35,593 nucleotides of DNA from positions 1 to 35,593 of the IMG/VR virus record IMGVR_UViG_3300025168_000277, one strand, 5' to 3'. Shown here one piece after another: positions 11,220 through 33,246 of this stretch. Source of the DNA: a virus. The notes under the pieces are model-generated. The model had not been told where the DNA came from and did not search any database. It saw only the letters and a list, made by a program, of their open reading frames with translations. Position 1 is the first letter of the stretch, and each line of letters opens with the position of its first letter. A program made the position numbers and the translations under genes.

Positions 11220-13529
11220 ATGCAGCCTATTTATGAGGTTAGAGACTACCTCATTGAGAAAGTGAGGACTGTCAATAGTAAGAATCCAAAAGCAAATACA
11301 GGCGCAGTAATACTGCAATACAACAAGGACTACGAAACAAATATGGAAGGCTTTGTAAAGAATGCTCTCCAAACTATACAAATATTGTTCACAACCAGTA
11401 GTAGTTCTAATCCTGTAGGAACAGCCAGCTTAACTAATGTATCATTCAAAATAGGAAGAGAAATTAGTAAAGAACTAGGAAGAGAATTAACTTGGCTTAA
11501 TCAAATTAGACTAGGTGACCTGTTCGTAGAAGCATTCTATCAATGTGGTTTTGCAGATATATATTATCCAAAAACTAGAAACACTAGTTATATTATATCT
11601 GCAACAGCTAGATGGGTAGAGCTGGCAGACATACCCGGTATGTTCTCTAGAATAAACCTACTGCACACTTCAATCACACCACCAAGAAACATTAATGGTA
11701 TGATGCAGAAGTCAGGAGCAGTATTTTTCCCTGTAATAAAAGGTAAAACTGCAAAAGATTTTCTAGAGTTAGACAAACCATATATACGGTCAATAAATAA
11801 ACTGCAAAACTCTGGATGGAGAATAAACAGAAGAGTACTAGATGTTATAGAGAAATACAAAGAAGTATTCTCTAGCTCTATACCATTTAAAGACAACGAT
11901 GCTAAAGAATTAAAACGTAGAAGTCAGGCATTAGAATGGAGTTTCATTATAGCTAAAGCTAATATATTAAAAGATGAAGATATATTCTATCAATATCTAG
12001 ACGCTGACTACAGAGGACGATTGTACTACAAAGAACCTTTCCTAAACTATCAAGGATCAGATATATCTCGTGGTATGTTAAAGTTCGCAAGAGCTAAACC
12101 TATGACACAAGAAGGTCTGTATTGGTTAGCAGTACATACAGCAACAAGTTACAATGCAAGCTTTAGTATAGATAAAATACCAGAGTGGTGTGAATCTGAT
12201 TATGAATCATACCTAAAAGAAGAAGGACTAGATGATATATCCGTAGATAAAATGACATTAGACGATAGAGTACGATGGGTTAATGAAAATATGGATGCAA
12301 TTGTTAACTTAGGTACAGATGGTGAGATTGATTCTGAAGCAGAAAAGATAGTAACTTTCTTAGCTTGCTGTATTGAATGGTCTGACTACACTAAAGCTGT
12401 AAAAGATAAAAGAATACATATGTCTAACCTTCCAATACCTATCGATGGGTCTAACAACGGGTGGCAACACTTAGGTGCTATATCTAAAGATACTCAAACA
12501 GGTGATCTTGTTGGTCTTATACCTAGAGAAATACAGAAAGACTTCTATGTACAAACTGCAAAAGAACTAATTAATCTAACAGATGATGAAAGGTTAATAA
12601 GCATACTAAACATGATGCCTATGAAAAGTATACGTAAAGGTATTACTAAACGTGGCAGCATGACTCGTGCCTACTCAGCAGGTGCTAAGAAGATCGCTGA
12701 GAATATGTTCTTTGATTGTAAAGCAGAAGATTATCATACAGAATATGGTATAACTCAGGACGATTGCAACAAGTTTGCTAAGGTATTAATAAAAGCAATC
12801 AATAATGTATGTCCGGGTCCATTACAGACTATGAGTTACCTTCAAGAGCTTGCTAAGTATGAACTTGGTACTTTCAAGAAGGTTGATGAAGATGGAAAGA
12901 TAGCAGGACCAGAGTATAAAGAAGCTGTAAAGAGAAGATCAGAATTGTTCAAAACAAAAGACATAACTGATGAAGAAATTGATGAGTTAAATGAACTTGT
13001 AAAGTTTACATCAAAATACAAATCAATTCTTGTATACGGCAATGGTGCTGATAGAGTTAAATGGACTACCCCATCTGGATTCAGTGTTGAATATACAAAA
13101 TTCAGAATGGAACGTAAGAAAGGTAGAGGTACTATCGCAGGGTTCAAGAAAAACAGTGGTGGTCATCAAGGGATAAACCACGTTGCTCAGACAGCAACTA
13201 TATATCCTGACATACAAGGGTTCTTGTGTGGTATATCACCAAATGTAATACACTCACTCGATGCAAGTCACATGGCTCTAGTAATAGATCAGTGGCATGG
13301 AGAGTTTGGTGCAGTGCATGATAGCTTCTCCACCCATGCATGTGACGTTGAACACCTCATTGGTATAACCAAGAGAGCGTTCATAGACATGTATGATGTA
13401 GATAACTTCTACAACTGGCTCGAACAAGAGCTAATATCTGAAGACCATGAGGGTCTAGAGGTACAACAACCACAGTTAGGTACACTAGATGTCAATGACA
13501 TCCAAGAGTCCGACTACTTCTTCGCATAG
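11220..13529 (+). CDS. T7-like single-subunit RNA polymerase, 769 aa
   Basis: The polymerase shows the family motifs in order: GR element with R267 (DYRGRLYY), motif A D409 (IDGSNNGWQH), motif B K477 to Y485 (TKRGSMTRAYS), HSLDASH, and motif C D701 (VHDSF), ending SDYFFA, very like the T7 C terminus. Motif B has Ser486 where T7 has Gly. Y485 is the residue equivalent to T7 Y639 and is retained. It is shorter than T7 RNAP (883 aa), so the N-terminal promoter-binding region is reduced. It lies at the end of the replication block and probably transcribes later genes. Confidence 0.96.
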   Translation: MQPIYEVRDYLIEKVRTVNSKNPKANTGAVILQYNKDYETNMEGFVKNALQTIQILFTTSSSSNPVGTASLTNVSFKIGREISKELGRELTWLNQIRLGDLFVEAFYQCGFADIYYPKTRNTSYIISATARWVELADIPGMFSRINLLHTSITPPRNINGMMQKSGAVFFPVIKGKTAKDFLELDKPYIRSINKLQNSGWRINRRVLDVIEKYKEVFSSSIPFKDNDAKELKRRSQALEWSFIIAKANILKDEDIFYQYLDADYRGRLYYKEPFLNYQGSDISRGMLKFARAKPMTQEGLYWLAVHTATSYNASFSIDKIPEWCESDYESYLKEEGLDDISVDKMTLDDRVRWVNENMDAIVNLGTDGEIDSEAEKIVTFLACCIEWSDYTKAVKDKRIHMSNLPIPIDGSNNGWQHLGAISKDTQTGDLVGLIPREIQKDFYVQTAKELINLTDDERLISILNMMPMKSIRKGITKRGSMTRAYSAGAKKIAENMFFDCKAEDYHTEYGITQDDCNKFAKVLIKAINNVCPGPLQTMSYLQELAKYELGTFKKVDEDGKIAGPEYKEAVKRRSELFKTKDITDEEIDELNELVKFTSKYKSILVYGNGADRVKWTTPSGFSVEYTKFRMERKKGRGTIAGFKKNSGGHQGINHVAQTATIYPDIQGFLCGISPNVIHSLDASHMALVIDQWHGEFGAVHDSFSTHACDVEHLIGITKRAFIDMYDVDNFYNWLEQELISEDHEGLEVQQPQLGTLDVNDIQESDYFFA

Positions 13530-13788: not shown

Positions 13789-13836
13789 CCCCCACTAGGA
13801 ATCCTTAATTGGAAACTTAGTGGGGGTATTTTTTTT
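13789..13836. terminator. Bidirectional terminator between converging arms
   Basis: CCCCCACTAGG (13789-13799) pairs with CTTAGTGGGGG (13816-13826), about ten base pairs. A T-run follows on the plus side (13829-13836) and an A-run precedes the stem (13783-13788), giving a U-run on the minus transcript. It ends transcription of both the plus replication arm and the minus virion arm. Confidence 0.88.
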
Positions 13837-16800
13837 ATCCTGAATAATGATTAGCAATATTTTCCTTGCTACCATCTTGATTTATTAAAGTATAACCTGA
13901 TTTCTTCATAAGATCTAATGCATTCATCTTTTGAACATGAGTTTTTGTAGCCCAATTTCTAAGTCTAGAAAAGTTTTTACCATATAAGAAACTAAAGTAA
14001 ATAGGTATTAACTCTTGTAAAAATCCATAATTTAAATTGTTCACAGTACTAATATAATCTGGAGAGTTAACATCAAAATTATATTTAGCGTTACCTCCAA
14101 TAGATGACGAAATCAAATGCCTTATAGTTGATAAAGACTGAGTTTGTACATTGTTAGATTGCTCTAACCAATTTTTATTATGAGACATAAAACTTTTAAT
14201 ATTTATATTAAACTGAGATTCATGTCTAAACTTTGCACGAGAACCTAACCTTTTATCATACTCTCTACTGCCCTCAGGTACACCTGAATTATAACTAAAC
14301 AAATCTACAAAGAATCTTTTATCTTCATCAGTTAGACGTTCTTTAGGGTTTTGTTTGTTTAACCATTTCATATATGAAGTATGTTCTTTTTGAAGAGAAT
14401 TTAAAAGTTGTTGAAATATATTATAATTCCTTATAACATCTGTAATAGCTCTATTAACTTCCCTTAACACTGTATCAAAAGTTCCTATGTCAAGATAAAT
14501 AGCATCATAAACCATTTGCATAAATGGGTTACCACCACTGTTATGGCCTATCATTGAGAATGTTTTACCAGTAAGAATATGATTGAAGACTGCTGCATCA
14601 ATTGAATGTACAACTTTAGAAATTATTTTACTATGTAGATCACCACCTGACATAGAGATATCTACCCCTGAAACTGGATCAATATCTTCTTTATATGCTG
14701 TCATAGATCTTTTAGTTTCCCATTGACCAACAGTTAAAGATATTTTTTCAAATTTATTAGGGTCTTCATCACCTTTATCTTTCAATAATTTACTTTGTCT
14801 TGTCATTGAATATGAATTAGATGTTGAATCATCCCATCCACGAGATTCCCATAAACCTACAGTCAAAGGTGTATTATCAGGACTCATAAAGATTAACTCA
14901 GGTGTGTTCATAAGTTGATAAGATAAACTAATAGTTCTTAAAATAGATCTATATTCTCTTGCATCATCCCCTTGTAAAACTTCATAACTTTCCATGTACT
15001 TTTTATGTACCATATGTGCTACAGCATTTAAGTTATTATTTTTCTTTAAATTATCATAAGAAGTAACAAAAGGATGTGGGTTCCCAATTGTTTGGCTAGA
15101 TTTTAAATTTCGATATAAAATATCAATAGTATTTTTAACATCTGCTTTATAAGAATCACGCTCCTTGCCAAAAGCTTCAGTCATTACAACATGCTTTGCC
15201 ATAGTATTATTCTTACCTTCACCTCTAGTTTTAAAAACCTCAACAGATATATTATGAATATCAAGATAAGGCAATTCACTATTAGGTGATCCATCACTAT
15301 CATTAAATAAGTTTTTAGGATAATCCCAGTTAATCACTGGTTCACTTTCAAGAGTACTTAAAAGAATACTAATTAGCTGATCTCTTAAATCTCCATTATC
15401 AAGGATAGATATACCTTGAGATCTTAACATGCCTGTTTTATATAAGTTATCTATATTACCTATCAAGGCGGCAATAATAAAAGCACCACTTGTTTTACCA
15501 TCTATGTTTGACATAGTTGTTGAGTAAAAAGGAGTGTCAGTATTTTCCCTTTTCCATTTCCTATATTTAGAAAACTCTGATAAGTCCTTTAAAAAAGCAA
15601 TGGATTCTATACCTTTTTCTTTTATAGCAGAAATTAACTTAGCATCCAATTCATTATTAGGATCTAACGTAGGTGAGTTCATTCCAGTAAACACTGGATT
15701 TTTTACTAACTCACTAACATGACCTTGACCTGCTACAGTTTTTTCAGGTGGTGGGAATATACCATCCTTCATACCGATAAGATCTTCTCCAAAATTATCT
15801 ACTAAATCAAACACTTCAATAACTCTATCACCCATCTCTTCAAAAAGATTACTATTTATTTCTAAATTACGATCTCTTTCTTTAAATAATAAGTCATCTG
15901 TTTTAAGACCTGTCTTAATTACTTTACCATCTGATATTGTATAATACTCTGCAGCTTTAATAGCAAAATTTAATGCAAACATCTGCCTAAGAAGAGCTTC
16001 AGATCTATTACCTTTACGAATAGGATAGACAACAGGATTAGCTAATGCACCCCTTACTATTTTTAAAGCTTGAGGATTTAAATGAGTTACATCTAAATCT
16101 ATTCTACCAGAAAACCCTTGTATAGCTGTATTAAAATAAAACAAAAGACCTTGCGCTCTAGCAAGAGACCTTAGTACCCTTGCAACTTGTAAGACTGCTG
16201 CATCATATTCTTGTTCTACTGTTGGAATGCGAGAGTTTTTAGGTACACCAGACCTTCTATTAAAATACTCAGTTACTTGTTGGCTTTCAATGGATGCAGT
16301 TATTTCATTAATTTTTGCTTGACCTATTCCAAGAGCATCTAACTTCCATCTTTTTGACTCATCACTCTTTTCAAACACAGTTTTATAACCTTCACCATCT
16401 TGTCTTGATTTTAAAAAAGGTATAAGTAATTGAAATAAAATATATAAATTTTTATTATTTATTTTAAAAGAAATACTAGAAAGATTAAACCTAGCCTCTT
16501 CAGCTTTTTTAGATAAGCGTCCACCAATAGCACCACGAACGGAATTTAAATTATCACCCTTTAAAGGTGGTGTTAGTAAAATATCTTTAAACTCTTTACG
16601 CAATAAAAACCCACGAGCCATTCTAGATTCAGGATTATTAAATACCTTATGACCTAACTCTGTCAATGCAAACTTAATTGGAGATGATATCTCACCACCC
16701 TTACCCTTAACAGAAGGTATTCTTGTAAGTAAAGGGTACTTAATACCACCATTATTATCAGCTCTACCTTCCTGACCATGAACAGAATATAATAACTCTT

Positions 16801-17896
16801 GAGCATAATCACCTAGTGTTGTAGCTTCTTGAGAATTAGAGTCAGCCTCCTCATCTCTACCCTGTGATAACCAGAATTGTTTTATTGCTTCACCACCTAT
16901 CATACCATTGCTTCTATTCTTTGCAATTAATGTTTTATCTTTATAATCAACTTGCTGTTGAACAGTTAAGTTATCCTTATTAGCTAAAGCATCAGCATAC
17001 ATAGACTTAGCTATTGCATCTTCAGCTGCTACAAGTAAAAACGTCACAAGATCAGGATGTAAATACATCTTTTGTTTTCTAGCCTCTGCACCTTGTCTTT
17101 CAATTTCAACACCTTCTACTTTAACAGGTCTTAAAGTTAAAGGTGCATCAGTATTTTCTCTTACAATACCACCAACTGATTCAGCAGCAGCAAGATAACT
17201 ACCGGGTCTTACAGATTTATGTCTAGCAAATGCTAACCGTTTAACAGGATCACTAGCAATCTGTATCATAGGTTTACCATTTAAATTTTCTTGTATCCAC
17301 TCAGGATGTTCAGCAAGAAACGATTCAGATGTAGATTCATAAGGTATTGTAAGACCTGCACCTTCGTTTCTAGAGTATTCTATTCCATCTTGTATTCTGG
17401 AATCTAAACCAATCAAAGCATCACCATTAACTAATGCCTTAATTGGATTAAGATATTCATCAGCAGCATTTGCTTCATCTTGTTCTGGGTTCCAAGTGCC
17501 AGATTTTATAGCCTCACGTCTACCAGTCACTGTAGTTGCAGTAGGATCTAAATCTACCCCAGAACTCTCTGATATCTCAGTAGCATCAGCTTCAACAGGA
17601 CCATAAGGTGATCCCTCTCTAAAAGGATCTTCACCAAAATCAAAAGGAACTGAAGAAGCTATATCATATAAACTTCGATTTTCTTTTTCAGCTGCAAGGT
17701 CAGACTCCCTTTGAATATCCACAGATGTAGGTGAGTTTAGCTCATCTGTTTCATCCACTAAATACTCTTCTACAGTATCTGCTACAGCCTCTTTAGCTTT
17801 AGATCGATTTTTTAAATCTTGTAATAAATCTGGATGAAGTGTATTACCAAGAGCTGTTTCATTATCCACTACCCCACCAACTGATGTTTTAGCCAT
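13835..17896 (-). CDS. Putative virion-packaged single-subunit RNA polymerase, 1353 aa
   Basis: Visible motifs in family order: GFSGRIDLDVTHLNPQ with R598 (T7 R425 region), motif A IDGKTSG with D799 (T7 D537), motif B NTMAKHVVMTEAFG with K901 and F909 (T7 K631 and Y639), VVHSIDA near 1095-1101 (T7 HSQDGSH), and motif C VYDAIYLD with D1131 (T7 D812). Spacing between motifs is longer than in T7, as in the N4 virion polymerase. The first 550 residues or so match nothing I know and could hold a packaging or injection domain. It is the last gene of the virion operon, four bases after the 1501-aa ejection protein, so packaging and ejection with DNA is likely. F909 (codon TTT, checked) replaces the sugar-discriminating Tyr. 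The motif match is direct; packaging is inference. Confidence 0.72.
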   Translation of the reverse strand: MAKTSVGGVVDNETALGNTLHPDLLQDLKNRSKAKEAVADTVEEYLVDETDELNSPTSVDIQRESDLAAEKENRSLYDIASSVPFDFGEDPFREGSPYGPVEADATEISESSGVDLDPTATTVTGRREAIKSGTWNPEQDEANAADEYLNPIKALVNGDALIGLDSRIQDGIEYSRNEGAGLTIPYESTSESFLAEHPEWIQENLNGKPMIQIASDPVKRLAFARHKSVRPGSYLAAAESVGGIVRENTDAPLTLRPVKVEGVEIERQGAEARKQKMYLHPDLVTFLLVAAEDAIAKSMYADALANKDNLTVQQQVDYKDKTLIAKNRSNGMIGGEAIKQFWLSQGRDEEADSNSQEATTLGDYAQELLYSVHGQEGRADNNGGIKYPLLTRIPSVKGKGGEISSPIKFALTELGHKVFNNPESRMARGFLLRKEFKDILLTPPLKGDNLNSVRGAIGGRLSKKAEEARFNLSSISFKINNKNLYILFQLLIPFLKSRQDGEGYKTVFEKSDESKRWKLDALGIGQAKINEITASIESQQVTEYFNRRSGVPKNSRIPTVEQEYDAAVLQVARVLRSLARAQGLLFYFNTAIQGFSGRIDLDVTHLNPQALKIVRGALANPVVYPIRKGNRSEALLRQMFALNFAIKAAEYYTISDGKVIKTGLKTDDLLFKERDRNLEINSNLFEEMGDRVIEVFDLVDNFGEDLIGMKDGIFPPPEKTVAGQGHVSELVKNPVFTGMNSPTLDPNNELDAKLISAIKEKGIESIAFLKDLSEFSKYRKWKRENTDTPFYSTTMSNIDGKTSGAFIIAALIGNIDNLYKTGMLRSQGISILDNGDLRDQLISILLSTLESEPVINWDYPKNLFNDSDGSPNSELPYLDIHNISVEVFKTRGEGKNNTMAKHVVMTEAFGKERDSYKADVKNTIDILYRNLKSSQTIGNPHPFVTSYDNLKKNNNLNAVAHMVHKKYMESYEVLQGDDAREYRSILRTISLSYQLMNTPELIFMSPDNTPLTVGLWESRGWDDSTSNSYSMTRQSKLLKDKGDEDPNKFEKISLTVGQWETKRSMTAYKEDIDPVSGVDISMSGGDLHSKIISKVVHSIDAAVFNHILTGKTFSMIGHNSGGNPFMQMVYDAIYLDIGTFDTVLREVNRAITDVIRNYNIFQQLLNSLQKEHTSYMKWLNKQNPKERLTDEDKRFFVDLFSYNSGVPEGSREYDKRLGSRAKFRHESQFNINIKSFMSHNKNWLEQSNNVQTQSLSTIRHLISSSIGGNAKYNFDVNSPDYISTVNNLNYGFLQELIPIYFSFLYGKNFSRLRNWATKTHVQKMNALDLMKKSGYTLINQDGSKENIANHYSG

Positions 17897-17899
17897 ATC

Positions 17900-20800
17900 T
17901 TACTCCTTGAAATTTAGGTTAGTTGTTAAGTCACCTATCTCGTTTGTTAATCTATTAATAGATCCAATGTACGGTGTTGCTTTAGAAAGTTTCTTAAGAC
18001 CACTACCAACATCACCAGTTATTAAATTTTCTCCTGCACCTATTAATCTTTCAAGGTTACCAAGTCCGGGAGATTCTCTAGATACTGCTCCAAATAAATA
18101 TTCAATCATAGTATCACCTTTATTACCCTGAGGGTACAAAGGCGCAAACTGATCTAGTATTCTTTCGTATGTACCTAATAATCCAGAAGACCTAACACCA
18201 CGTTGAAGGTAACCTGACGTATCTAAGTAAGGATTACTACGACTACCTTCAAGTGGATTAACCACACCCATGAAGTTGTCTTCATCTTCATACTTCAACA
18301 TGTCCTTAATAGCTTGAGAAGCAAATCCCAACATGATCATAGTTGCCATCATAGAGTATGCACTATACTTCATAGTTGGTGAACCACGTTTAAGGTACTC
18401 ACCATATAACCTTGGCAAGTGACTAGCTGTAAACGTAGCCATAAACCCTTGAAACTGTGTAAACAATGCGTACCTAGGATCTTGATAGATTAAAGGTCTA
18501 TTCATAGCCATAGGTAATGCCACTGCTTCATTAACAAAATTAAATGTAGCTTCTCTTAGCTGACTGTTTCTATATTCCATTTCTTTTTCTGTTAATATAT
18601 CTAGACCACCTTTCTGCTCCATGTCTCCAATTGAATTATTAGTTTCAATAATTTTCTTTCTTGCAGATTCCTTTTCTTCTAAGGTAGTAGTATCACTAAG
18701 GAGTATTTTATACTCTGCTATATTAGCATGTTTCATATTTAAATCAAATCTTTTATAAAAATCTACAAAAGTTTCAACATCTAATCCTAAGTTTCTTAAT
18801 GACTCTTTAGCTTGAGTTACTTCACGAGTTACCTTATCAACTTCTTCTCTATTTAATGTAAGGGTTCCGGGTTCTTCATCAATATCTCTTTTTAAATCCA
18901 TTGAATTAACAAAATTAGAGATTGATTCTCTACCTAACTCTGTATTTATATCAATAAAAGGATCAACATCAAAAACATAACCGTAATCAACAATCAGTTT
19001 TAATTTTTCACTAATAAAGTCAGCTGCAATAGAAGCACGAACAGCACGAGTGTAGTTTGTCCACCCTTGTAAACCATTCCATTTAAAATATGATTGCATA
19101 ATATTTCTTTGCCAAGCATTAATTTCTGTAGCACCAACTGTAGTCGATGCACCTAAGCCACTTTTAATATAACCCAGATCACGTATAATCCTTTGACCTC
19201 TTGCTAACTTAGCAGATGTATCAAAGTTTTTACCACCGGGTATATCATTAGATATTTGTTTCATACCAGACTTAATCATTGCAGCAAACTCTTGACCTTG
19301 AGTTTTTAAAAGACCATTAACATCTTCAGGTTTTAAATGCCTACCAGTTAAAGCAAGCTCAACAAAAGAAGATATAGTAGATAAAGATAAGCCAGCTAAA
19401 GCTGTAAACATTAAGAACGATCTTTGTATTTGTTCAAGTTTCTTACCTGCCTCAGTAGTTGCACGTTTAAAATTTCCAGACTCAGCTAACAGTGCGTTAG
19501 ATAACTCAAAAGCTAATTTATCAATTAAAATTTGAGCTTTCTCTTCACCATAAACCTTAGCTAAATTTTCTTGAGACTGATTAAGTAATTCATTTACAAT
19601 CCTACCATCTTTACCTATAAACATAGAGTGTGATAAGTGTCTTGCAGCTGTAGCAGAGTAGCGTGTTAAATTAGTAAACACATCTTGCTCTAAGAACTCT
19701 TTAAACTCTGGTCTTTCGGAAAGTTTTAAAGTTCTTTTCTTAGTAAAGCTAGGGTTAAGATCACCCTTTACCATTGAAAAAGCTTCATCAAGATCAACTG
19801 TTCCAGTGGTAATTATCTTATCAATCACAGCATCAATCTCAGTTTCTGAATAATTTATATCTTTTCTAATACTCATTAATAATTTTTTAAATAACTTTTT
19901 CTTTTTCCTAACACTCCTTACACTTAAAGTTTTAAATACACTACCGTATTGTGGTGTATACTCTAATGAACCTCTCTCTCTACCTTGTGTATCTAATCTA
20001 TTACTCTTAAGGTTTTGTTCATTAATTTTTTTAAACACAGTGTCAGTAGCTTTATTAATCTGATTAATTAATTCTATATATGTTTCTCTGTTCTTTAAAT
20101 CCAATGGTATTAAAGTTTCATCAAACACAACACTAGTAGTACCATCAGGATTCTTTACAGTTTTTTTAGCATTATCCCATACATCATTAAACTTTTCAGA
20201 TGCAGCCTTCTGTTTCTTCCTAGTTGAATTACCTTCAATTACTGTATTATAAAAAGTAGACTGATCCATAACATCACTCATAATTTCAGATTGTAAATGT
20301 ACCTTTATAGACTCCCATGCTGCACCACTAAAAGATTTTTGATTAGCGTTACCAAAGATATCTTTCAACATTCTTCCGGGAACTTCTGCAACTGCTAAAA
20401 ACTCTTTTGTAAAACTAGACGTAGATATACTCTGGAAAAATTTAGGAAACATTTTTAAACTATCAATAACTCTATTTTGAAAAGCCATTTTACCAAACCT
20501 TTGCATATGTCTTTGAGACTTATCATTAAGGTCATCTGTATTAATTTTATTCTTTGGGTTTTGTAAGTTTCCTTTTTCTATATTTAACTTAGCTTTTGCT
20601 TTAGCATCTGCATATAACTTTGCTTTAGCTGTCTCAGATCTACCATCCCACTCACCTTTAGCTATACTTTTTTTCTTTGCAATACTAAAAAGTCTAAAAG
20701 CTTCATCATCAATTGCTTTATTATTTACTTGAGCTAAGTCATCTGCTTCGGATGCATTGTCTTGATTCGTTGGCATACCTTTTAAATTATTCTTTTTAAT

Positions 20801-22405
20801 ATATTCATCAGCCCATGCACTAGCATCTGATATCTCAGAACCATCTCCTTCTTGCGCGCCATAGGCAATGTTAGCCCATCCTACATGATTTGATGCCTGA
20901 AAAGGCACACTAAATCCAAGACCTAAAGCTCCACCAGTAATCGCAGCTGTCATCATTCTTTTATTTAATTCATCAAAGTCAAAGACTTTATCAGATCCAG
21001 CAGTGGCTGCAAGATAGTTAGTAGCTTCTTGACCAAGCTCTGTTAATCCCTCACCAGCTGATGCAGCTCCTGATTTTGAAGCTATAGATTTAAAAAGTTC
21101 TTTCCCTCTTATCTGTTCTTTAGCTACCTTAGCAGCATCACCTGCAAAACCTACAAGTTCTCGCTTAGTTGCAGTAGCTATCTGAGCCTGTGCAACTTCC
21201 CTAGGGACACCCCTTGCAATCAATTCTAATAGAGCAGTATCTAAAAGTTTCTTAGGCATAACACCTTTACTAAATACAGCTGCTAAACCTAATCTATCTA
21301 AGGTTGCTTGAACAACACCAGACATCATAGCAATTTTTGGATCTCTATTACCAGACATCTCATTATAAGTTTGACCTGCATACACAGCAGAGGTAGCAGA
21401 TATACCAAGAGGTAATGCTAAAGTAGCACCTATCAAAGGAGTGGCTACATTAGCAACAGCTAAAGTACCTAAAGCTAAAGCCATGTAAGGTACAGACATA
21501 GCTGCGTTATTAGCAAGCCATATCATAGTATCATATGCACCATCAATATCTCTGTAGTCTGTTAACCTTGTACCATACTCACCTATTTTGGCACGATACC
21601 TTTCAACACCTTCTTCCCCTATATCACTCAATCTCTCTGCGTCTAGTAGATCACCAGATGCTTCTAAGAAACCATACATACCTTCCATGACTCCCATCCA
21701 ACCATGTTCCCAAGAGTCGGTAATAGGGTTTAAAGATTCATTGGTTACAGTACGATCATTCTTTCTTGTTTGAGTAAGAGTTTGGGAGTAATAGTTCCCT
21801 TGTTCTAATTGGTTTGCAGCTGCTAATTCCTTTTCATCAAATGCAACTTTCTTTATTCCTTGTGAGAACTCTCCCTCTTTTATTCTAGCAGAAAGCATTT
21901 GATTCCTAGCTAAATCATAGCTTGTGGTCTCAGCACTTCCCATACTATAGAACCTTTCTAAAGCCCCTACACTATGTTTAGCTACATCTAAATCTGAAGA
22001 GTATGCAGAAGTACCTAATATTCCCTCTCTTAAAATCTTATCTTTAAAACTTTGACCACTACTATTTACTAAGTCAGCCAATGTTCTTCCATAGAAATCT
22101 TTTTTAATATTTCCCTTACCATCAGTAAGAGGTCTAATATTAGTAAAGCCATTATCATTTGCTAGCTTTGACATAATAGCTGTAGCTGCTGAACCTCCAG
22201 CAGTTCCTTCTTTAAAAGTACCATCATCAAGTATTTTTGAAACTTCGGGAGTATCAAACCCAACTAGCCTATACCTAACACCTCCTTTGTCAACAGTATC
22301 TCCGTCAACAAAGTAAGGCATGGTATTAGGAGATTGAATGTAATCATTCGGGTCACCAAGCTGTGAGCTTTCAAACCTCTCATTTACTGCATCTATCAAA
22401 CTCAT
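17900..22405 (-). CDS. Giant ejection protein with N-terminal SNase-type nuclease, 1501 aa
   Basis: Residues about 28-150 form a staphylococcal-nuclease-like domain: FVDGDTV (D34, D36), RLVGFDTPE (R46, D51, T52, E54) and DFYGRTLADL (R107) supply every catalytic residue of that family. A long hydrophobic stretch (about 296-345), further hydrophobic segments near the middle and C terminus (LMFTALAGLSLSTISSF, MMATMIMLGFASQAI) and a Gly-rich tail ending near LITGDVGSGLKKLSK suit a membrane-inserting internal virion protein of the T7 gp16 kind. Such proteins form the DNA-ejection channel. It sits between the murein-hydrolase and polymerase genes. An added nuclease could act on host DNA or RNA after entry; it must be restrained in the virion. 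The domain call is strong, the ejection role inferred. Confidence 0.78.
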   Translation of the reverse strand: MSLIDAVNERFESSQLGDPNDYIQSPNTMPYFVDGDTVDKGGVRYRLVGFDTPEVSKILDDGTFKEGTAGGSAATAIMSKLANDNGFTNIRPLTDGKGNIKKDFYGRTLADLVNSSGQSFKDKILREGILGTSAYSSDLDVAKHSVGALERFYSMGSAETTSYDLARNQMLSARIKEGEFSQGIKKVAFDEKELAAANQLEQGNYYSQTLTQTRKNDRTVTNESLNPITDSWEHGWMGVMEGMYGFLEASGDLLDAERLSDIGEEGVERYRAKIGEYGTRLTDYRDIDGAYDTMIWLANNAAMSVPYMALALGTLAVANVATPLIGATLALPLGISATSAVYAGQTYNEMSGNRDPKIAMMSGVVQATLDRLGLAAVFSKGVMPKKLLDTALLELIARGVPREVAQAQIATATKRELVGFAGDAAKVAKEQIRGKELFKSIASKSGAASAGEGLTELGQEATNYLAATAGSDKVFDFDELNKRMMTAAITGGALGLGFSVPFQASNHVGWANIAYGAQEGDGSEISDASAWADEYIKKNNLKGMPTNQDNASEADDLAQVNNKAIDDEAFRLFSIAKKKSIAKGEWDGRSETAKAKLYADAKAKAKLNIEKGNLQNPKNKINTDDLNDKSQRHMQRFGKMAFQNRVIDSLKMFPKFFQSISTSSFTKEFLAVAEVPGRMLKDIFGNANQKSFSGAAWESIKVHLQSEIMSDVMDQSTFYNTVIEGNSTRKKQKAASEKFNDVWDNAKKTVKNPDGTTSVVFDETLIPLDLKNRETYIELINQINKATDTVFKKINEQNLKSNRLDTQGRERGSLEYTPQYGSVFKTLSVRSVRKKKKLFKKLLMSIRKDINYSETEIDAVIDKIITTGTVDLDEAFSMVKGDLNPSFTKKRTLKLSERPEFKEFLEQDVFTNLTRYSATAARHLSHSMFIGKDGRIVNELLNQSQENLAKVYGEEKAQILIDKLAFELSNALLAESGNFKRATTEAGKKLEQIQRSFLMFTALAGLSLSTISSFVELALTGRHLKPEDVNGLLKTQGQEFAAMIKSGMKQISNDIPGGKNFDTSAKLARGQRIIRDLGYIKSGLGASTTVGATEINAWQRNIMQSYFKWNGLQGWTNYTRAVRASIAADFISEKLKLIVDYGYVFDVDPFIDINTELGRESISNFVNSMDLKRDIDEEPGTLTLNREEVDKVTREVTQAKESLRNLGLDVETFVDFYKRFDLNMKHANIAEYKILLSDTTTLEEKESARKKIIETNNSIGDMEQKGGLDILTEKEMEYRNSQLREATFNFVNEAVALPMAMNRPLIYQDPRYALFTQFQGFMATFTASHLPRLYGEYLKRGSPTMKYSAYSMMATMIMLGFASQAIKDMLKYEDEDNFMGVVNPLEGSRSNPYLDTSGYLQRGVRSSGLLGTYERILDQFAPLYPQGNKGDTMIEYLFGAVSRESPGLGNLERLIGAGENLITGDVGSGLKKLSKATPYIGSINRLTNEIGDLTTNLNFKE

Positions 22406-22428: not shown

Positions 22429-25400
22429 TTAATTAAACCTTTCACTGTACATAAGGTACTCTAAGTATTTTAAGAACTCACTTTTCCCTGCGTGAGCTTT
22501 ACCTTTACTATCTCTCCAGTCTTCTATGTTCTTAGCTATTGGAGCATTATTACCCTTATCAGAACCTTGGTAATCTCTGTTAGGCCCTGCTCCCTCAACA
22601 AAGTTTTCTCTCCAAGTATTCCAATCTGGAAACATTACCTCATCTAAAGGTTTATTTTTATTAATCTCTCTTATTTTTTCAGACACAAGTGCAAGAAGAC
22701 CAGATGAAAATACTCCCAAATCTTTATCATGAAGATTTGGAAACAGATAAGTAGTTACTCCATCCCTAGTTTTTTGCATCTTTTGAAGTTTTAAAAATGT
22801 ATTTGTAATATCACTAGGCTTATCATACTGAGCTGAAGAAGCATGAGTATATGTAGTAGCATGTCGTTTAGATTTTTCAGCTGGCTTAGTCATAAACAAA
22901 GACTCGTCTTGACCTATTTTAATTTTAATCCAAGCAGCATTCATAAATGAACTATCTACATCCATACCTGCAATGCCTCTAATTGTAGACGCTTTACCTG
23001 ACCCACCTGTTTTTATATGATGTTTGTATGCTTCTGCCATAGCTTGTTCATATATTTCTAGAACCACAGCCGAAGGAAGGTTGTACCTCTGACCAAAGTG
23101 AGCTAAATTTATTGCTTCTGCTGTAGGTGCTACTTTAGAAAAGGTGTTAAAGGTCTTATCACTATCTTTACCAGATACCTGTTTAGTATCATCATACGTG
23201 TACGTGTCTAAATAATCATCTACCGAACCTTTATACGTAGTAGTAGCTGATGCTGAAAAGTCTAGATAATCTGTTGATTGAAAGTCTCTAGCTATAACAG
23301 AATCATCAGTCCAAAGTGGATCCATAGGATTAATCTTCACTTTATCATTCTTCTTTGTCTTTGGATTATAAATAGAAGCCATATATCCAGACTGTTTTTT
23401 ATCACCTGTACCAGTAGACCAATATACAGCTGTATATTTACCAACCTTATTACCATTTTTATCTAGTCGGTAGTAAACCTTAGTCTTTGATGCATCATAA
23501 TTTGTATTATTTAACTCACTAAATCTTACTAAGTCATCTGTATCTTGACTCCTATTATATAACTCAAGACTGGGTTTAGTAAATACATTATAACTTGCTA
23601 ATTTTTTAACATGGTTATTCCACATATCTAACTTATTAACGTAAGCAACTTGGGTCATGTAGTCTTCACCAGCAGCTTTAATAGCTTGGTTACCTGTAGC
23701 ACCAGTTGCTCTGTATGCTGCGTAAATCATAGCTGCTCTTGCTAAAGACTTACCATCAAACACATCATCAAATGCAGCTTTAATAACACCTTCAGCTGCA
23801 TCTAAAATTCCTTTCCACTTAGTAGGTTTTTCAGCTTTATCTATTTCCATCTGTTGTAAAGCAGCTTTAGTTGATCCCCCAAAAGGATCATTACCAAAAA
23901 TCTTTGCTCTCTCTGGTTCAGATCCCGGTTCTTGTGGGTTATCATAAGCAATTAATTTATTTCTTACATCTGCTTCAGAGCCATGTATTAAAGAAGGTTG
24001 AGCTTTATTAATCCTTTCCATACTAGATGTTTTAAATGCATCAGATACATCAGCAATCCCTTTAACTTTTTCAATATATGCATCTATACTTTTTACTTGA
24101 GGACTATCTTCTGCAAGACCTTGATCAATATACTCTTGTCTTTTATCTAACGCTTTATCAATAACTACTTTATTCTTTTCTATTCCAATTATTGCGTTTC
24201 TAATATTTTTACTTTCAAATATTTGAAGTCTTGCCTTAGAGTCTTCTACTTTTTTATCTAGCTTTTCACGATCAGACGTACTAAGATCGGTATTATATTG
24301 ACTAATTAAATCAGCAAGTGTTTTCTCTTCTGATCTTAAATAATCTAAAGAAGATCTTATTGGAGTTTCTTTGCTTATAAGAGAACCACCGGGTCCGGGT
24401 ATTCCTTCTGAACTAATCGGAGGTTTAAAATCTACTGAGTCTTCAGAAATATATGGGTTTTGAATATCTTTTAATAGTTCAGGTGTATTCTCAGGAACTA
24501 TATCTGTAAATAAATCGCTACTATAAATAGGGTTGTTTTTTAGCAAGTTACCACCACCCAACCAAGGAGCAACTTTGCGTTCTTTAGTAAGAAAATTCCA
24601 CCATTTATTAGAGGACTTTTCTTCTTGAGCGTCTATTGGTATTGGGCCTTCTGGTGATGAAGTTGTACCTTCAGTAACTAATGTGTTCTGTCCTGTATTA
24701 GGAACAGCACCACCGTAAGGACTATCTACAAAATTCTTACCATCCCAGTTAGAAAACTGTTGCTGCCGCGTTTGATTAAGACCGGGCATTATTCTTCTTT
24801 CATTAGTCTCTATATTTTCCTGAATAGGTGTATCATTTTTACCAGTGTAAAACTCCCATAAATCTTTTTTCTCTGGAGTCTCTTCAACTTCAGGCGAGGG
24901 GATACCATAAGGGAATCCATGAGAATCTAATCTTGGTGGGTAAGAATGTAGCTGCCTACCATAAGGATCACCGGGTCCACCTAAGACGTTATTACGAGCC
25001 TGAGAAGAACCATACAACATAGCTTCATCAGTCATCTGATCTCTACCTAGTTGATTAACTTTATGCTTTGTAAAACCACCTGACTTATTACCCTTTAGTA
25101 ATCCTTGTATTAATGTTTGTATAGAGCTAGCTCCAGTATTTGCGTACATAGGGGTATCCTCCATAGCTGGTACGTTTAAAAATGAGTTCTCTACAGAATC
25201 TCTTGTTGATTTCATAATATTATTTATATGATCTTCAGCGTTAGATGTTGGTACATCTAAAGTTCTAACCTTTGGTATAAGAGACTTGTAGCCTACGATA
25301 GGGTTTTGATAACCTAATACTTTATCATCACTAGAGAAAACATGATTACCAATTTTTCTTCTATTATGTGTTTTACTCCACCATTCCATAGGATAACCTT

Positions 25401-26043
25401 CACCTTCTAGCTTATCACTACCTTCAAATCCATAAAAGTTATCATCATCAGGTCTTAAAAAATAGTGAGCACCATTAGTAGGATCTACAATATCACCTTT
25501 TATCATACCTTCAAGAATAGCTTTAGATCTTAAGTATTCTTCTGACTCTTCTATCTTATCTTTATACCAATGATAAGTTGGATTATTTGATCTTGGATTA
25601 GCTGATGAAAATTGGTATCTAATTTCTCCTTTTTTGTTTTTTTTATTTTTATTAATTATATCTTTTATACTATTACCACCCCATTGCTTTTGATCTGCTT
25701 TCTGTCTATTTAAAACAGTATACATAACACCAGCTCTACCTTCGTCATCTTCTCCAACAGACTCTCCTAAAGACATTCTAATTAATAAGTCTTTATCATC
25801 TTCAGATAAAACATACTTACCATCATTAGCAGTAAGGTATGGTATATTACCACCTGCATTATACTTTGGTACATCACCTTTAACCATTTTATTTTCTGCA
25901 GCTCTTTGCTCTAAACCTGCATCATTCATAGCTTGTAGTTGTGGTCCAAACATCTGAGAAGCTTCTTTATTTATTACCCATTCACCCGGAGTTAGCATCG
26001 CAGGGATGCTATCTCTGTTCGTAGGATCTGTAAGGTCTCTCAT
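22429..26043 (-). CDS. Internal virion protein with SleB-type murein hydrolase domain, 1204 aa
   Basis: Residues 84-240 match the SleB cell-wall hydrolase domain: IRMSLGESVGEDDEGRAGVMY with E94, QFSSANPR, DPTNGAHYFLRPDD, and a closing IGNHVFSS. SleB enzymes are lytic transglycosylases; in a virion protein the domain would open the cell wall during DNA entry. The N terminus has DSIPAMLTPGEWVINKEA (11-28), a motif usual in tail tape-measure proteins. A charged coiled-coil section lies near 560-690 and an Ala-rich amphipathic section near 750-800. It is followed at 24 bases by the SNase-fusion gene. No holin or free endolysin is visible, so it may also aid exit, but entry is more likely. Confidence 0.82.
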   Translation of the reverse strand: MRDLTDPTNRDSIPAMLTPGEWVINKEASQMFGPQLQAMNDAGLEQRAAENKMVKGDVPKYNAGGNIPYLTANDGKYVLSEDDKDLLIRMSLGESVGEDDEGRAGVMYTVLNRQKADQKQWGGNSIKDIINKNKKNKKGEIRYQFSSANPRSNNPTYHWYKDKIEESEEYLRSKAILEGMIKGDIVDPTNGAHYFLRPDDDNFYGFEGSDKLEGEGYPMEWWSKTHNRRKIGNHVFSSDDKVLGYQNPIVGYKSLIPKVRTLDVPTSNAEDHINNIMKSTRDSVENSFLNVPAMEDTPMYANTGASSIQTLIQGLLKGNKSGGFTKHKVNQLGRDQMTDEAMLYGSSQARNNVLGGPGDPYGRQLHSYPPRLDSHGFPYGIPSPEVEETPEKKDLWEFYTGKNDTPIQENIETNERRIMPGLNQTRQQQFSNWDGKNFVDSPYGGAVPNTGQNTLVTEGTTSSPEGPIPIDAQEEKSSNKWWNFLTKERKVAPWLGGGNLLKNNPIYSSDLFTDIVPENTPELLKDIQNPYISEDSVDFKPPISSEGIPGPGGSLISKETPIRSSLDYLRSEEKTLADLISQYNTDLSTSDREKLDKKVEDSKARLQIFESKNIRNAIIGIEKNKVVIDKALDKRQEYIDQGLAEDSPQVKSIDAYIEKVKGIADVSDAFKTSSMERINKAQPSLIHGSEADVRNKLIAYDNPQEPGSEPERAKIFGNDPFGGSTKAALQQMEIDKAEKPTKWKGILDAAEGVIKAAFDDVFDGKSLARAAMIYAAYRATGATGNQAIKAAGEDYMTQVAYVNKLDMWNNHVKKLASYNVFTKPSLELYNRSQDTDDLVRFSELNNTNYDASKTKVYYRLDKNGNKVGKYTAVYWSTGTGDKKQSGYMASIYNPKTKKNDKVKINPMDPLWTDDSVIARDFQSTDYLDFSASATTTYKGSVDDYLDTYTYDDTKQVSGKDSDKTFNTFSKVAPTAEAINLAHFGQRYNLPSAVVLEIYEQAMAEAYKHHIKTGGSGKASTIRGIAGMDVDSSFMNAAWIKIKIGQDESLFMTKPAEKSKRHATTYTHASSAQYDKPSDITNTFLKLQKMQKTRDGVTTYLFPNLHDKDLGVFSSGLLALVSEKIREINKNKPLDEVMFPDWNTWRENFVEGAGPNRDYQGSDKGNNAPIAKNIEDWRDSKGKAHAGKSEFLKYLEYLMYSERFN

Positions 26044-32400: not shown

Positions 32401-33246
32401 ACCAGTTGATAACCCTGTAGCTGTTTGACTCCAACCATCTAGTGTTCCACCAGATAATGTATTATTTAAAAATGTATATGTAAAAGTACCAGTTGGATCA
32501 GTAGGAGGAGTTGAGTTACTTGTGTTAGCTTTGTATAGTTGAACAGTAGCAACATTAGTTCCGTCAATTACATCAGATATTGTTATACCATCTGATACTG
32601 TAAAGTTACCAGCTGAAGTTACAACACACTGAAAGAAGTCAGAAGATCCAGATATATCACTAGGAGTTACCATTAAGAATGGTTTATCTAAATCACTAGT
32701 ACCCATTCCAGAATAAGCAGGATCAAAGGATGCTCCGTTCTTTGTCCAAGCATAAGAGTATCCTCTTCTATCTGCAACACTAGAACTAACGCCACCAACA
32801 CGTACATCAGCTATAAGTACTTTTGTATTAGTATCTGAACCAAAGTTTATACCAGTATTAGTTTGTGGAAATACTGAAGAACTTAAATAATCGATAGATC
32901 CTCCAGCCCATTGAGATGCTAATGTAGAAAAAGAAGTTGTAGATCCTAATGCTCTTACGGATACTTGTGAAAATATAGCGTTATCCCCTGAGGCTCCTTT
33001 AAACTCTACAAATATTACATCTACTAAAGGTAACGTAGGTTTAGTTAAAGACTCGTGGAAGTACACAAATGTTCTTGTTCCCGGTGAAAACGATTGATTG
33101 GCTCCACTAACACTTGTAGCATATATTGTAAATACAGAAGTACCTGTAGTACCTTCAACTGTACCAGAATCTAAATCATCTCTTATACTTTCTAAATAAG
33201 AATTTAGTTCTGGGTTATCTGTTATGGGTGGTAAACGTAATACCAT
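29425..33246 (-). CDS. Large tail fibre / host-specificity protein with tandem modules, 1273 aa
   Basis: N-terminal 400 residues are beta-rich and Thr/Ser/Gly-rich, with Ig-like spacing. From about residue 480 to 970 three related modules of roughly 145-165 residues follow; each has LTPVEKLxIKxxWDxIRGE or a variant, a FDLKFKTYYDxRQ-type helix and an Ala-rich coiled-coil linker (AATAQxELNDIS). The same helix pattern is frequent in lambda gpJ-like tail proteins. The C-terminal 300 residues include NTxTANQIxxNAIT repeats and a beta domain ending GFALLGIGLKR, expected to bind the host. The previous stop overlaps its start (TAATG). It is the main candidate for receptor binding. Confidence 0.8.
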   Translation of the reverse strand: MVLRLPPITDNPELNSYLESIRDDLDSGTVEGTTGTSVFTIYATSVSGANQSFSPGTRTFVYFHESLTKPTLPLVDVIFVEFKGASGDNAIFSQVSVRALGSTTSFSTLASQWAGGSIDYLSSSVFPQTNTGINFGSDTNTKVLIADVRVGGVSSSVADRRGYSYAWTKNGASFDPAYSGMGTSDLDKPFLMVTPSDISGSSDFFQCVVTSAGNFTVSDGITISDVIDGTNVATVQLYKANTSNSTPPTDPTGTFTYTFLNNTLSGGTLDGWSQTATGLSTGQYLWMIQASAVSLNTSVSIAASAFSNAILMSSNITGGTGETGARQTNGIVYRTTTDSTPPSAPTNSNSTYSFNDAAFTTLPSGWSQVPPVLDTNDNDPYYQCTFKAVEASAGGNVTETFGLVAKVITFDGIVKFTNSGASLGSTVSGTTTTVHFPKTFKQSGIPTSLAKNDVWIDTDDNLMYIALSAGADQITAGEWERSLDATAQAAATAANTAAVNAASAASTAATNAATAQGELNDISSDSVLTPVEKLAIKPLWDTIRGVQSGIIATAVDAGISTGHAKYIAFTSAYTALTTYLVTGVGSIAIFDTNGALVLSSGELVNTTIVRSTFDLKFKTYYDSRQALLDLISETLKDRADVGVQNALTAQNKANDAFDNAATAQGELNDISSDAILTPVEKLSIKTLWDSIRGEYAGIIATSVDAGVATNHTKYTTYTSAYTALTTYLVSGTGSIAIFDTNGALVLSSGELVNTSISRTSGTNAFDLKFKTYYDARQGLLDFTASTLKDKTDTAQDKADDAFDDAATAQAKANTAFDNAATAQGLLDNIADDDYITPNEKPSIQTIWDAIRGEKPGIRSTALSVGVVGGHTTFTTFNSAYDSLYQYLVTGNGSIELFTSASSGATLTSATSSNLITRTVFNGHFKTYYDARQALLDYTAVVTRASATTAQNAATAAQTTADGKAKSFYQDGMPNATAIGDVWVDTNDDNKMYFAVNANAGPTNAGRTPSNWVLEDFASIINANTTTIDGGKITANSVTATQILANTITANQIATNAITADELHADAITGKNILIGDLAVNTSTGAVTGGEGFKAIGTGTGAGIVSMGDATTNITVHPSSGLLTLNGNVVGTANLNPSSVTTNSTLFPSAVVITSNTYQDLGTMTLPITAGMTGAFWFSGFISFPSEAGQGAVYPGPMIVRVLYADGSLAYQFSENVNGQGGQAVRINGLALFTAVSGATSMVVKLQGAINSTDGNIRDTTLSGFALLGIGLKR
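30984..31051 (-). repeat. 68-bp exact direct repeat, copy A
   Basis: This segment is identical to 31428-31495, 444 bases away, within fibre module 2. It encodes the fragment around GSIAIFDTNGALVLSSG. Exact identity includes third codon positions, unlike the surrounding module sequence. Confidence 0.92.
31428..31495 (-). repeat. 68-bp exact direct repeat, copy B
   Basis: Identical to 30984-31051, within fibre module 1. A second exact match of 29 bases flanks it (31382-31410 with 30926-30954). Recent duplication or gene conversion between modules is the likely cause. Confidence 0.92.

What the first reader, a model, noticed from the sequence alone, without database searches (positions are those of the whole stretch)
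17900..22405. Complete SNase catalytic domain fused to a giant ejection protein
The N-terminal 150 residues have all seven catalytic/metal residues of staphylococcal nuclease (D34, D36, R46, D51, T52, E54, R107), fused to a membrane-active protein of ejection type. I know of no standard podovirus ejection protein with such a domain. It could act on host nucleic acid at entry, remove competing DNA, or degrade incoming rivals. How it avoids damage to the packaged genome is an open question; calcium dependence could provide control.
Basis: partly seen in the sequence, partly recalled or inferred. Interest (0 to 1): 0.74.

Follow-up and report, generated by a model that had tools for sequence, protein, structure and literature searches.

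The report
Nuclease-armed phage ejection protein
A short-tailed phage carries, on the protein that helps push its DNA into a bacterium, a built-in DNA/RNA-cutting domain that its sequenced relatives also keep intact, suggesting these viruses deliver a nuclease at the moment of entry.

Summary
The rest of the protein is homologous to phage LUZ24 gp50, a virion protein that lacks the SNase. Of 84 distinct family proteins, including gp34 of the cultured marine Roseobacter phage CRP-7 ("hypothetical protein"), 82 could be aligned and 82 of 82 keep D34, D36, R46, E54 and R107. D51 is kept in 55; T52 is variable. The other two have the domain on a separate upstream ORF. The domain is under purifying selection. 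It lies in an ejection cassette: the upstream protein often carries a swappable peptidoglycan hydrolase, and the next gene downstream is a compact single-subunit RNA polymerase (72 of 72 cases). In a sister clade a lysozyme sits directly before the SNase, pointing to a periplasm-side location. Most likely it is an active nuclease co-delivered with the polymerase at DNA entry; its substrate is unknown. Calcium alone probably cannot protect a seawater phage's packaged genome. I found no earlier description in the papers searched. No activity or virion content was shown.

The parts
17900..22405 (-). 1501-aa ejection-type protein with N-terminal SNase domain
   Evidence: ORF; phrog_6958 residues 207-438 E 2.3e-13; LUZ24 gp50 homology
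21956..22324 (-). SNase domain, residues 28-150; catalytic D34, D36, R46, D51, E54, R107
   Evidence: AF2 model and VIA-align Z 10.7 to S. nuclease; PDB profile hits; 82 of 82 alignable relatives keep D34/D36/R46/E54/R107
17900..21730 (-). Residues 226 to C terminus: region homologous to LUZ24 gp50, which has no SNase
   Evidence: hhalign A1 vs LUZ24 gp50: 932 aligned columns, E 6.5e-19, starting at window residue 226
21377..21502 (-). Hydrophobic stretch, residues 302-343, candidate membrane hairpin after the SNase
   Evidence: Kyte-Doolittle scan; equivalent region has a 19-residue peak of 1.2 or more in 80 of 82 relatives
19346..19420 (-). Second hydrophobic stretch, residues 996-1020
   Evidence: Kyte-Doolittle scan
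13835..17896 (-). 1353-aa single-subunit RNA polymerase of the ejection cassette (virion-RNAP-like); conserved R598, D799, K901, D1131
   Evidence: AF2 core pTM 0.80; T7/mitochondrial/N4 RNAPs Z 14-18; motifs invariant in 92 of 92 distinct relatives; phrog_2206 E 0.0012
22429..26043 (-). 1204-aa upstream ejection-cassette protein with N-terminal cell-wall hydrolase domain
   Evidence: Pfam Hydrolase_2 E 1.1e-9, residues 97-236; phrog_15649
25336..25755 (-). Hydrolase_2 (SleB-type) domain of the upstream protein
33246..35477 (-). LUZ24 gp56-like virion protein, start of the structural module in the window
   Evidence: phrog_3287 E 6.8e-58; tblastn to LUZ24 gp56 E 3e-19
11220..13529 (+). Second, intracellular T7-type RNA polymerase on the opposite, early strand
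   Evidence: Pfam RNA_pol E 9e-56; phrog_414

Best explanation
The protein is the large member of a short-tailed phage's ejection cassette, extended at its N terminus by a complete SNase domain. Shown from sequence and models: SNase homology and fold, intact active site, purifying selection, fusion to a LUZ24 gp50-type virion protein, and position between a peptidoglycan-hydrolase-bearing protein and a single-subunit RNA polymerase. Inferred: the protein is packaged near the portal, is ejected at adsorption with the hydrolase and the polymerase, and helps build the channel across the envelope. The SNase, which precedes the first hydrophobic hairpin, stays on the periplasmic side, as the N-terminal transglycosylase of T7 gp16 does. 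There calcium is plentiful, and it cuts nucleic acid around the entry channel while the phage's own DNA is shielded inside the channel. In the producing cell the low cytosolic calcium keeps it silent; inside the virion it must be held away from DNA by position or fold. The most plausible substrate is DNA that competes at the envelope (rival genomes, debris DNA); host nucleic acid is the next candidate.
For: Domain. Conservation: 82 of 82 alignable relatives keep D34, D36, R46, E54, R107; G117 is the only other such column in residues 27-199 (the gap-dominated columns 20-26 set aside). The scans that found the relatives used C-terminal peptide patterns, not the SNase, so the domain's presence in 82 of 83 distinct complete proteins is not an effect of the bait. 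Selection: dN/dS 0.02-0.32 for the SNase in 14 informative pairs (17 pairs printed; L144/L177, L164/L162 and L201/L196 set aside as frameshifted, 3 codons, dS zero). Cassette: RNAP downstream in 72 of 72 distinct proteins with a downstream ORF. Upstream hydrolase in 6 of 9 relatives scanned, in the window and in CRP-7 gp35. Location: a sister clade carries a GH24 lysozyme N-terminal to the SNase (8 of 8 hit Pfam Phage_lysozyme; PDB lysozyme E 0.003), and no hydrophobic segment lies between them (7 proteins); a lysozyme must reach the periplasm. T7 gp16 N-terminal domain is periplasmic (PMC8954989, passages).
Against: No activity, metal use, virion content or ejection has been measured. D51 (calcium ligand D40 of S. 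nuclease, recalled) is Asp in 55, Glu in 11 and Ser/Asn/other in 16 of 82, so metal use may vary. Pfam recognises only 10 of 48 domains at E 0.1, the window domain scores below the cut-off, and CRP-7 gp34 gives no Pfam SNase hit. Universal retention fits an obligatory entry function at least as well as an optional weapon against rivals. Hydropathy is a weak guide to topology in ejection proteins, which refold. The domain is acidic (median pI 4.7), unlike the basic S. nuclease (recalled). The substrate is inference only.
Confidence: 0.42

Rival explanations
1. The nuclease is delivered into the cytoplasm and attacks host DNA or RNA at the start of infection, for shut-off or nucleotide supply, together with the co-ejected polymerase.
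For: Invariant next-door RNA polymerase, which must act in the cytoplasm, suggests that this cassette delivers large enzymes inside; early gene content is that of a lytic phage.
Against: An SNase that needs calcium would be nearly silent in bacterial cytosol (recalled). The phage already has a 5'-3' exonuclease and an HNH endonuclease among its early genes. It would endanger the incoming phage DNA. The lysozyme-SNase order argues for the periplasm.
Confidence: 0.24
2. The domain works during assembly or inside the virion, for example trimming DNA or clearing nucleic acid from the portal core before packaging ends.
For: Ejection proteins lie by the portal and compete with DNA for space (PMC8402733, abstract read).
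Against: A nonspecific nuclease in the head is dangerous: packaged SNase digests T4 DNA when calcium is added (PMC3012670). LUZ24 gp50 does without the domain.
Confidence: 0.12
3. It is an anti-defence enzyme that destroys host defence RNAs or nucleotide signals at entry.
For: Delivery at time zero suits counter-defence; SNases cut RNA as well as DNA (recalled). No call tested this.
Against: No defence link was found; the domain is fixed across the family instead of patchy, and anti-defence genes are usually patchy (recalled).
Confidence: 0.1
4. The SNase fold is kept only as a nucleic-acid-binding or structural module, as in several SN repeats of Tudor-SN.
For: Best Foldseek PDB hits are human SND1; calcium ligand D51 is not universal.
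Against: 82 of 82 keep the catalytic Arg/Glu/Arg and two Asp while the domain as a whole diverges to 23-46% identity with the window.
Confidence: 0.08

Closest known systems
Staphylococcal (micrococcal) nuclease family, PF00565
   Same: Fold, order of strands and helices, and the D-x-D-T...R...D-x-x-E...R active-site pattern
   Different: N-terminal domain of a 1501-aa ejection-type protein, acidic (pI 4.9), D51 variable in the family
LUZ24 gp50 / phrog_6958 virion structural protein (Bruynoghevirus)
   Same: Homologous over 932 aligned columns; same kind of place in the structural module
   Different: 1055 aa, no SNase domain found, and no annotated RNA polymerase gene next to it
T7 gp16 ejection protein
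   Same: Large ejection protein with an N-terminal enzyme domain ahead of the membrane part (PMC8954989, passages)
   Different: Enzyme is a lytic transglycosylase, not a nuclease; sequence homology to T7 gp16 was not tested here
N4/DEV (Schitoviridae) virion RNA polymerase ejectosome
   Same: Single-subunit RNAP encoded beside the ejection proteins at the point where early and late genes converge (PMC10925440 and PMC12633501, passages)
   Different: Polymerase of 1353 aa instead of about 3,500; companion protein carries a nuclease; gene content otherwise points elsewhere (LUZ24-type tail proteins)
Roseobacter phage CRP-7 (MK613349) gp33-gp35
   Same: Same cassette order and SNase domain (A3 profile E 2.9e-25; catalytic residues present)
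   Different: Only about 20% identical to the window protein; its genes are annotated hypothetical and its paper has no occurrence of 'nuclease' as a word start
Engineered T4 heads with packaged staphylococcal nuclease
   Same: SNase inside a phage head, controlled by calcium (PMC3012670, PMC7697877, passages)
   Different: Artificial; the nuclease destroys the packaged genome when calcium is added

Membership tests
SNase (PF00565) | SNase fold | tested here: met
   AF2 pLDDT 89.3; VIA-align Z 10.7, 116 residues, rmsd 3.4 to S. nuclease
SNase (PF00565) | Catalytic Asp21, Arg35, Glu43, Arg87 equivalents (S. nuclease numbering recalled) | tested here: met
   D36, R46, E54, R107 present and invariant in 82 of 82 alignable relatives; PDB alignment puts them on the S. 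nuclease residues
SNase (PF00565) | Second calcium ligand Asp40 equivalent (recalled) | tested here: met
   D51 in the window; Asp in 55 of 82 relatives, Glu in 11
SNase (PF00565) | Pfam gathering score | tested here: inconclusive
   Window 16.7 and 19.6 bits, below 21; family member L126 24.4 bits, above
SNase (PF00565) | Calcium-dependent cleavage of DNA and RNA | not testable with these tools
   needs purified protein
LUZ24 gp50-type ejection/virion protein (phrog_6958) | Sequence homology over the main body | tested here: met
   hhalign E 6.5e-19 over 932 columns; phrog_6958 E 2.3e-13
LUZ24 gp50-type ejection/virion protein (phrog_6958) | Place in the structural module beside other ejection-type genes | tested here: met
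LUZ24 gp50-type ejection/virion protein (phrog_6958) | Present in the virion and ejected into the cell | not testable with these tools
   virion proteomics needed
N4-type virion RNA polymerase (neighbour 13835-17896) | Single-subunit RNAP fold and catalytic motifs | tested here: met
N4-type virion RNA polymerase (neighbour 13835-17896) | About 3,500 aa with large N- and C-terminal domains | tested here: not met
   1353 aa in the window; 1117-1689 aa for full ORFs of relatives
N4-type virion RNA polymerase (neighbour 13835-17896) | Packaged in the virion | not testable with these tools
   inferred from its place in the cassette

The most novel reading that the evidence does not exclude
A large marine phage lineage outside Schitoviridae has an ejection machine with three enzymes: a swappable peptidoglycan hydrolase, an obligatory SNase-type nuclease and a compact virion RNA polymerase. 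The ejected nuclease is stationed on the periplasmic side of the DNA channel and destroys rival incoming DNA, a virion-borne form of superinfection exclusion present from the first second of infection and kept off the phage's own genome by the channel.
Probability: 0.22. Interest if true: 0.86.

Novelty: new variant of a known kind. Interest (0 to 1): 0.64.

Why it matters
Podovirus ejection proteins are known to carry peptidoglycan hydrolases and, in schitoviruses, an RNA polymerase; a nuclease on one of them adds a new activity to what a virion delivers. The 2022 review of ejection proteins has no occurrence of 'nuclease'. The domain is more constant in this family than the hydrolase, so it is unlikely to be decoration. 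It raises a clear, testable problem: how a nonspecific nuclease is packed with a genome in calcium-rich seawater. CRP-7 is in culture, so the question can be tested.

Tried and rejected
Chance motif: rejected by fold and by conservation. Pseudo-enzyme: unlikely, same calls. Assembly artefact of one contig: rejected, many independent contigs plus CRP-7. Calcium alone as the safety lock: judged insufficient. Hydrolase and SNase as one exchangeable slot: rejected, hydrolases vary while the SNase stays.

Searches that gave nothing or little: PDB search with residues 1-150 alone; tblastn of the protein and of the polymerase in named phages at 1e-5; viral scan with the gp56-like protein; PDB profiles of the full-length proteins A1 and A2; hhalign of the polymerase profile to N4 vRNAP aligned only a 35-column stretch around motif A (E 0.035, probability 1.5%). 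Foldseek PDB E-values for the SNase were above 0.001; S. nuclease came top only in VIA-align. Paper searches for an SNase on an ejection protein found none. They cover open-licence PMC only; of the 61 and 754 hits I saw 15 and 12 in the listing.

Limits: scans kept the best 80 of 157 and 80 of 141 relatives, so more distant members were not examined and may lack the domain. Of 163 family ORFs, 28 were dropped (start off the contig or under 1000 aa) and identical copies merged, leaving 83. One search covered 41 of the 75 helicase loci's records; 22 of 41 had the protein, and many of the others are fragments.
Full report
What is there. The ORF at 17900-22405 lies on the minus strand and encodes 1501 aa. 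The window is a 35,593-base viral record. Early genes (DNA polymerase, HNH endonuclease, 5'-3' exonuclease, primase-helicase, T7-type RNA polymerase) run on the plus strand. A structural module runs on the minus strand and meets them at about 13.8 kb. The structural module includes a LUZ24 gp56-like protein, a protein with a cell-wall hydrolase domain, the SNase protein and, last, a 1353-aa protein.

The SNase domain. Pfam sees it weakly in the window (E 0.01, 16.7 bits, cut-off 21). A relative, L126, passes the cut-off at 24.4 bits, and 10 of 48 family domains match at E 0.1 or better. A profile built from the 48 domains finds staphylococcal nuclease first in the PDB (E 0.001 and 0.002), and the alignment lays D-x-D-T, Arg, D-x-x-E and the late Arg on the enzyme's own residues. 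AlphaFold on those 48 rows gives pLDDT 89.3 and pTM 0.78. VIA-align gives Z 10.7 over 116 residues at 3.4 A for S. nuclease, and 301 of 940 chains reach Z 8. Foldseek alone ranked human SND1, also an SN-domain protein, first at E 5e-3. In the viral model library a 1368-aa protein came first (E 2.2e-8); its length equals that of CRP-7 gp34, but the table gives no name. Viral proteins annotated as nucleases (one as a micrococcal nuclease homologue) are among the next hits.

Conservation. Relatives were reached in two steps. The primase-helicase brought 75 loci; 22 of the 41 records searched encode the protein. A profile of 13 full-length proteins then brought 157 relatives, best 80 kept; a second profile led by CRP-7 brought 141, best 80 kept. 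The baits were C-terminal peptides. Among 83 distinct complete proteins, 82 match the SNase profile. The exception, L177, has the domain on an overlapping upstream ORF, and one of the 82, L162, matches only in part because its SNase is on a separate ORF that ends at an in-frame TAA. With window and CRP-7 there are 84 distinct proteins; 82 align through the domain, and all 82 keep D34, D36, R46, E54 and R107. T37 is Thr in 80 and Ser in 2. D51 is Asp in 55, Glu in 11 and otherwise mostly Ser or Asn; T52 is mostly Ala. In close pairs the domain's dN/dS is 0.02-0.32 in the 14 informative pairs out of 17 printed, lower than the rest of the protein in 9 of the 14.

The carrier. From window residue 226 onward the protein is homologous to LUZ24 gp50 (hhalign E 6.5e-19), annotated as a virion structural protein, which begins after the SNase position and shows no such domain. 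A hydrophobic stretch at residues 302-343 follows the SNase; the equivalent region is hydrophobic in 80 of 82 relatives.

The neighbours. The next gene downstream is a single-subunit RNA polymerase. It matches phrog_2206, virion RNA polymerase, at E 0.0012. Its core models at pTM 0.80 and aligns with mitochondrial, T7 and N4 virion polymerases (Z 18.3, 18.1 and 17.5). The catalytic Arg, motif A Asp, motif B Lys and motif C Asp are invariant in 92 of 92 distinct relatives (motif names recalled). It stands next to the SNase protein in 72 of 72 distinct cases with a downstream ORF. The upstream protein carries a peptidoglycan hydrolase of changing type: SleB-like in the window, and lysozyme, tail lysozyme, SLT or SleB-like in 6 of 9 relatives scanned. 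In one clade whose upstream protein showed none (L196), a GH24 lysozyme is fused directly before the SNase. This is the best clue to location: a lysozyme has to reach the periplasm, and no hydrophobic segment separates it from the SNase (7 distinct proteins).

How it most likely works. By the T7 model the N-terminal enzyme of the large ejection protein lies in the periplasm beside the tunnel (PMC8954989, passages); in N4 and DEV the polymerase is ejected with its tunnel partners (PMC12633501, PMC10925440, passages). I infer that this protein is ejected in the same way, with its SNase on the periplasmic side, where calcium is available and the phage DNA is inside the channel. The substrate is open; DNA of rivals or debris fits the place, host nucleic acid fits the timing. 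Inside the head, calcium cannot be the only lock: SNase packed in T4 heads digests the DNA once calcium is added (PMC3012670). Position by the portal or restraint of the domain must matter.

What is known. CRP-7 was described in 2019 as a new phage group without mention of a nuclease on this protein ('nuclease' as a word start has 0 occurrences in the main text of PMC6918029; passages read); its gp33-gp35 are annotated as hypothetical. The paper searches found no SNase on an ejection protein. I file the domain as SNase and the carrier as a LUZ24 gp50-type protein; the polymerase works like the N4 virion polymerase but does not meet its size.

Noticed in passing
window 13835-17896 (-); L131-L291: Compact single-subunit RNA polymerase (1117-1689 aa in full ORFs of relatives) in the ejection cassette of phages that are not typical Schitoviridae, whereas the DEV paper calls the virion RNAP unique to that family (PMC10925440). 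It is so divergent that tblastn finds no named phage at 1e-5.
   Followed up: yes
L196:7344-12158, L207, L248, L256, L122, L123, L124, L127, L128: GH24-type lysozyme (pattern E-8x-D-5x-T, recalled) fused directly before the SNase; the upstream protein of L196 lacks a detectable hydrolase.
   Followed up: yes
upstream proteins, e.g. window 22429-26043, L168:5014-7986, L149:4145-7918, L206:4042-7926: The peptidoglycan hydrolase on the upstream ejection protein changes type between relatives (SleB-like, lysozyme, SLT, tail lysozyme).
   Followed up: partly
L162:1440-1890: In-frame TAA between the SNase (142-aa ORF) and the rest of the protein, with a possible restart a few codons on; natural split or sequence error.
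   Followed up: no
L177:7941-12012: SNase and main body on overlapping ORFs in different frames; a close relative (L144) is intact, so probably an assembly error or a frameshift.
   Followed up: no
L214, L215, L216: Relatives in MAG contigs labelled Dehalococcoidia, Bacteroidetes and Pelagibacter; probably free phage contigs that were binned with bacteria, so no host can be read from them.
   Followed up: no
window 21956-22324: The SNase domain is acidic (pI 4.9; family median 4.7), which might reduce contact with packaged DNA.
   Followed up: no
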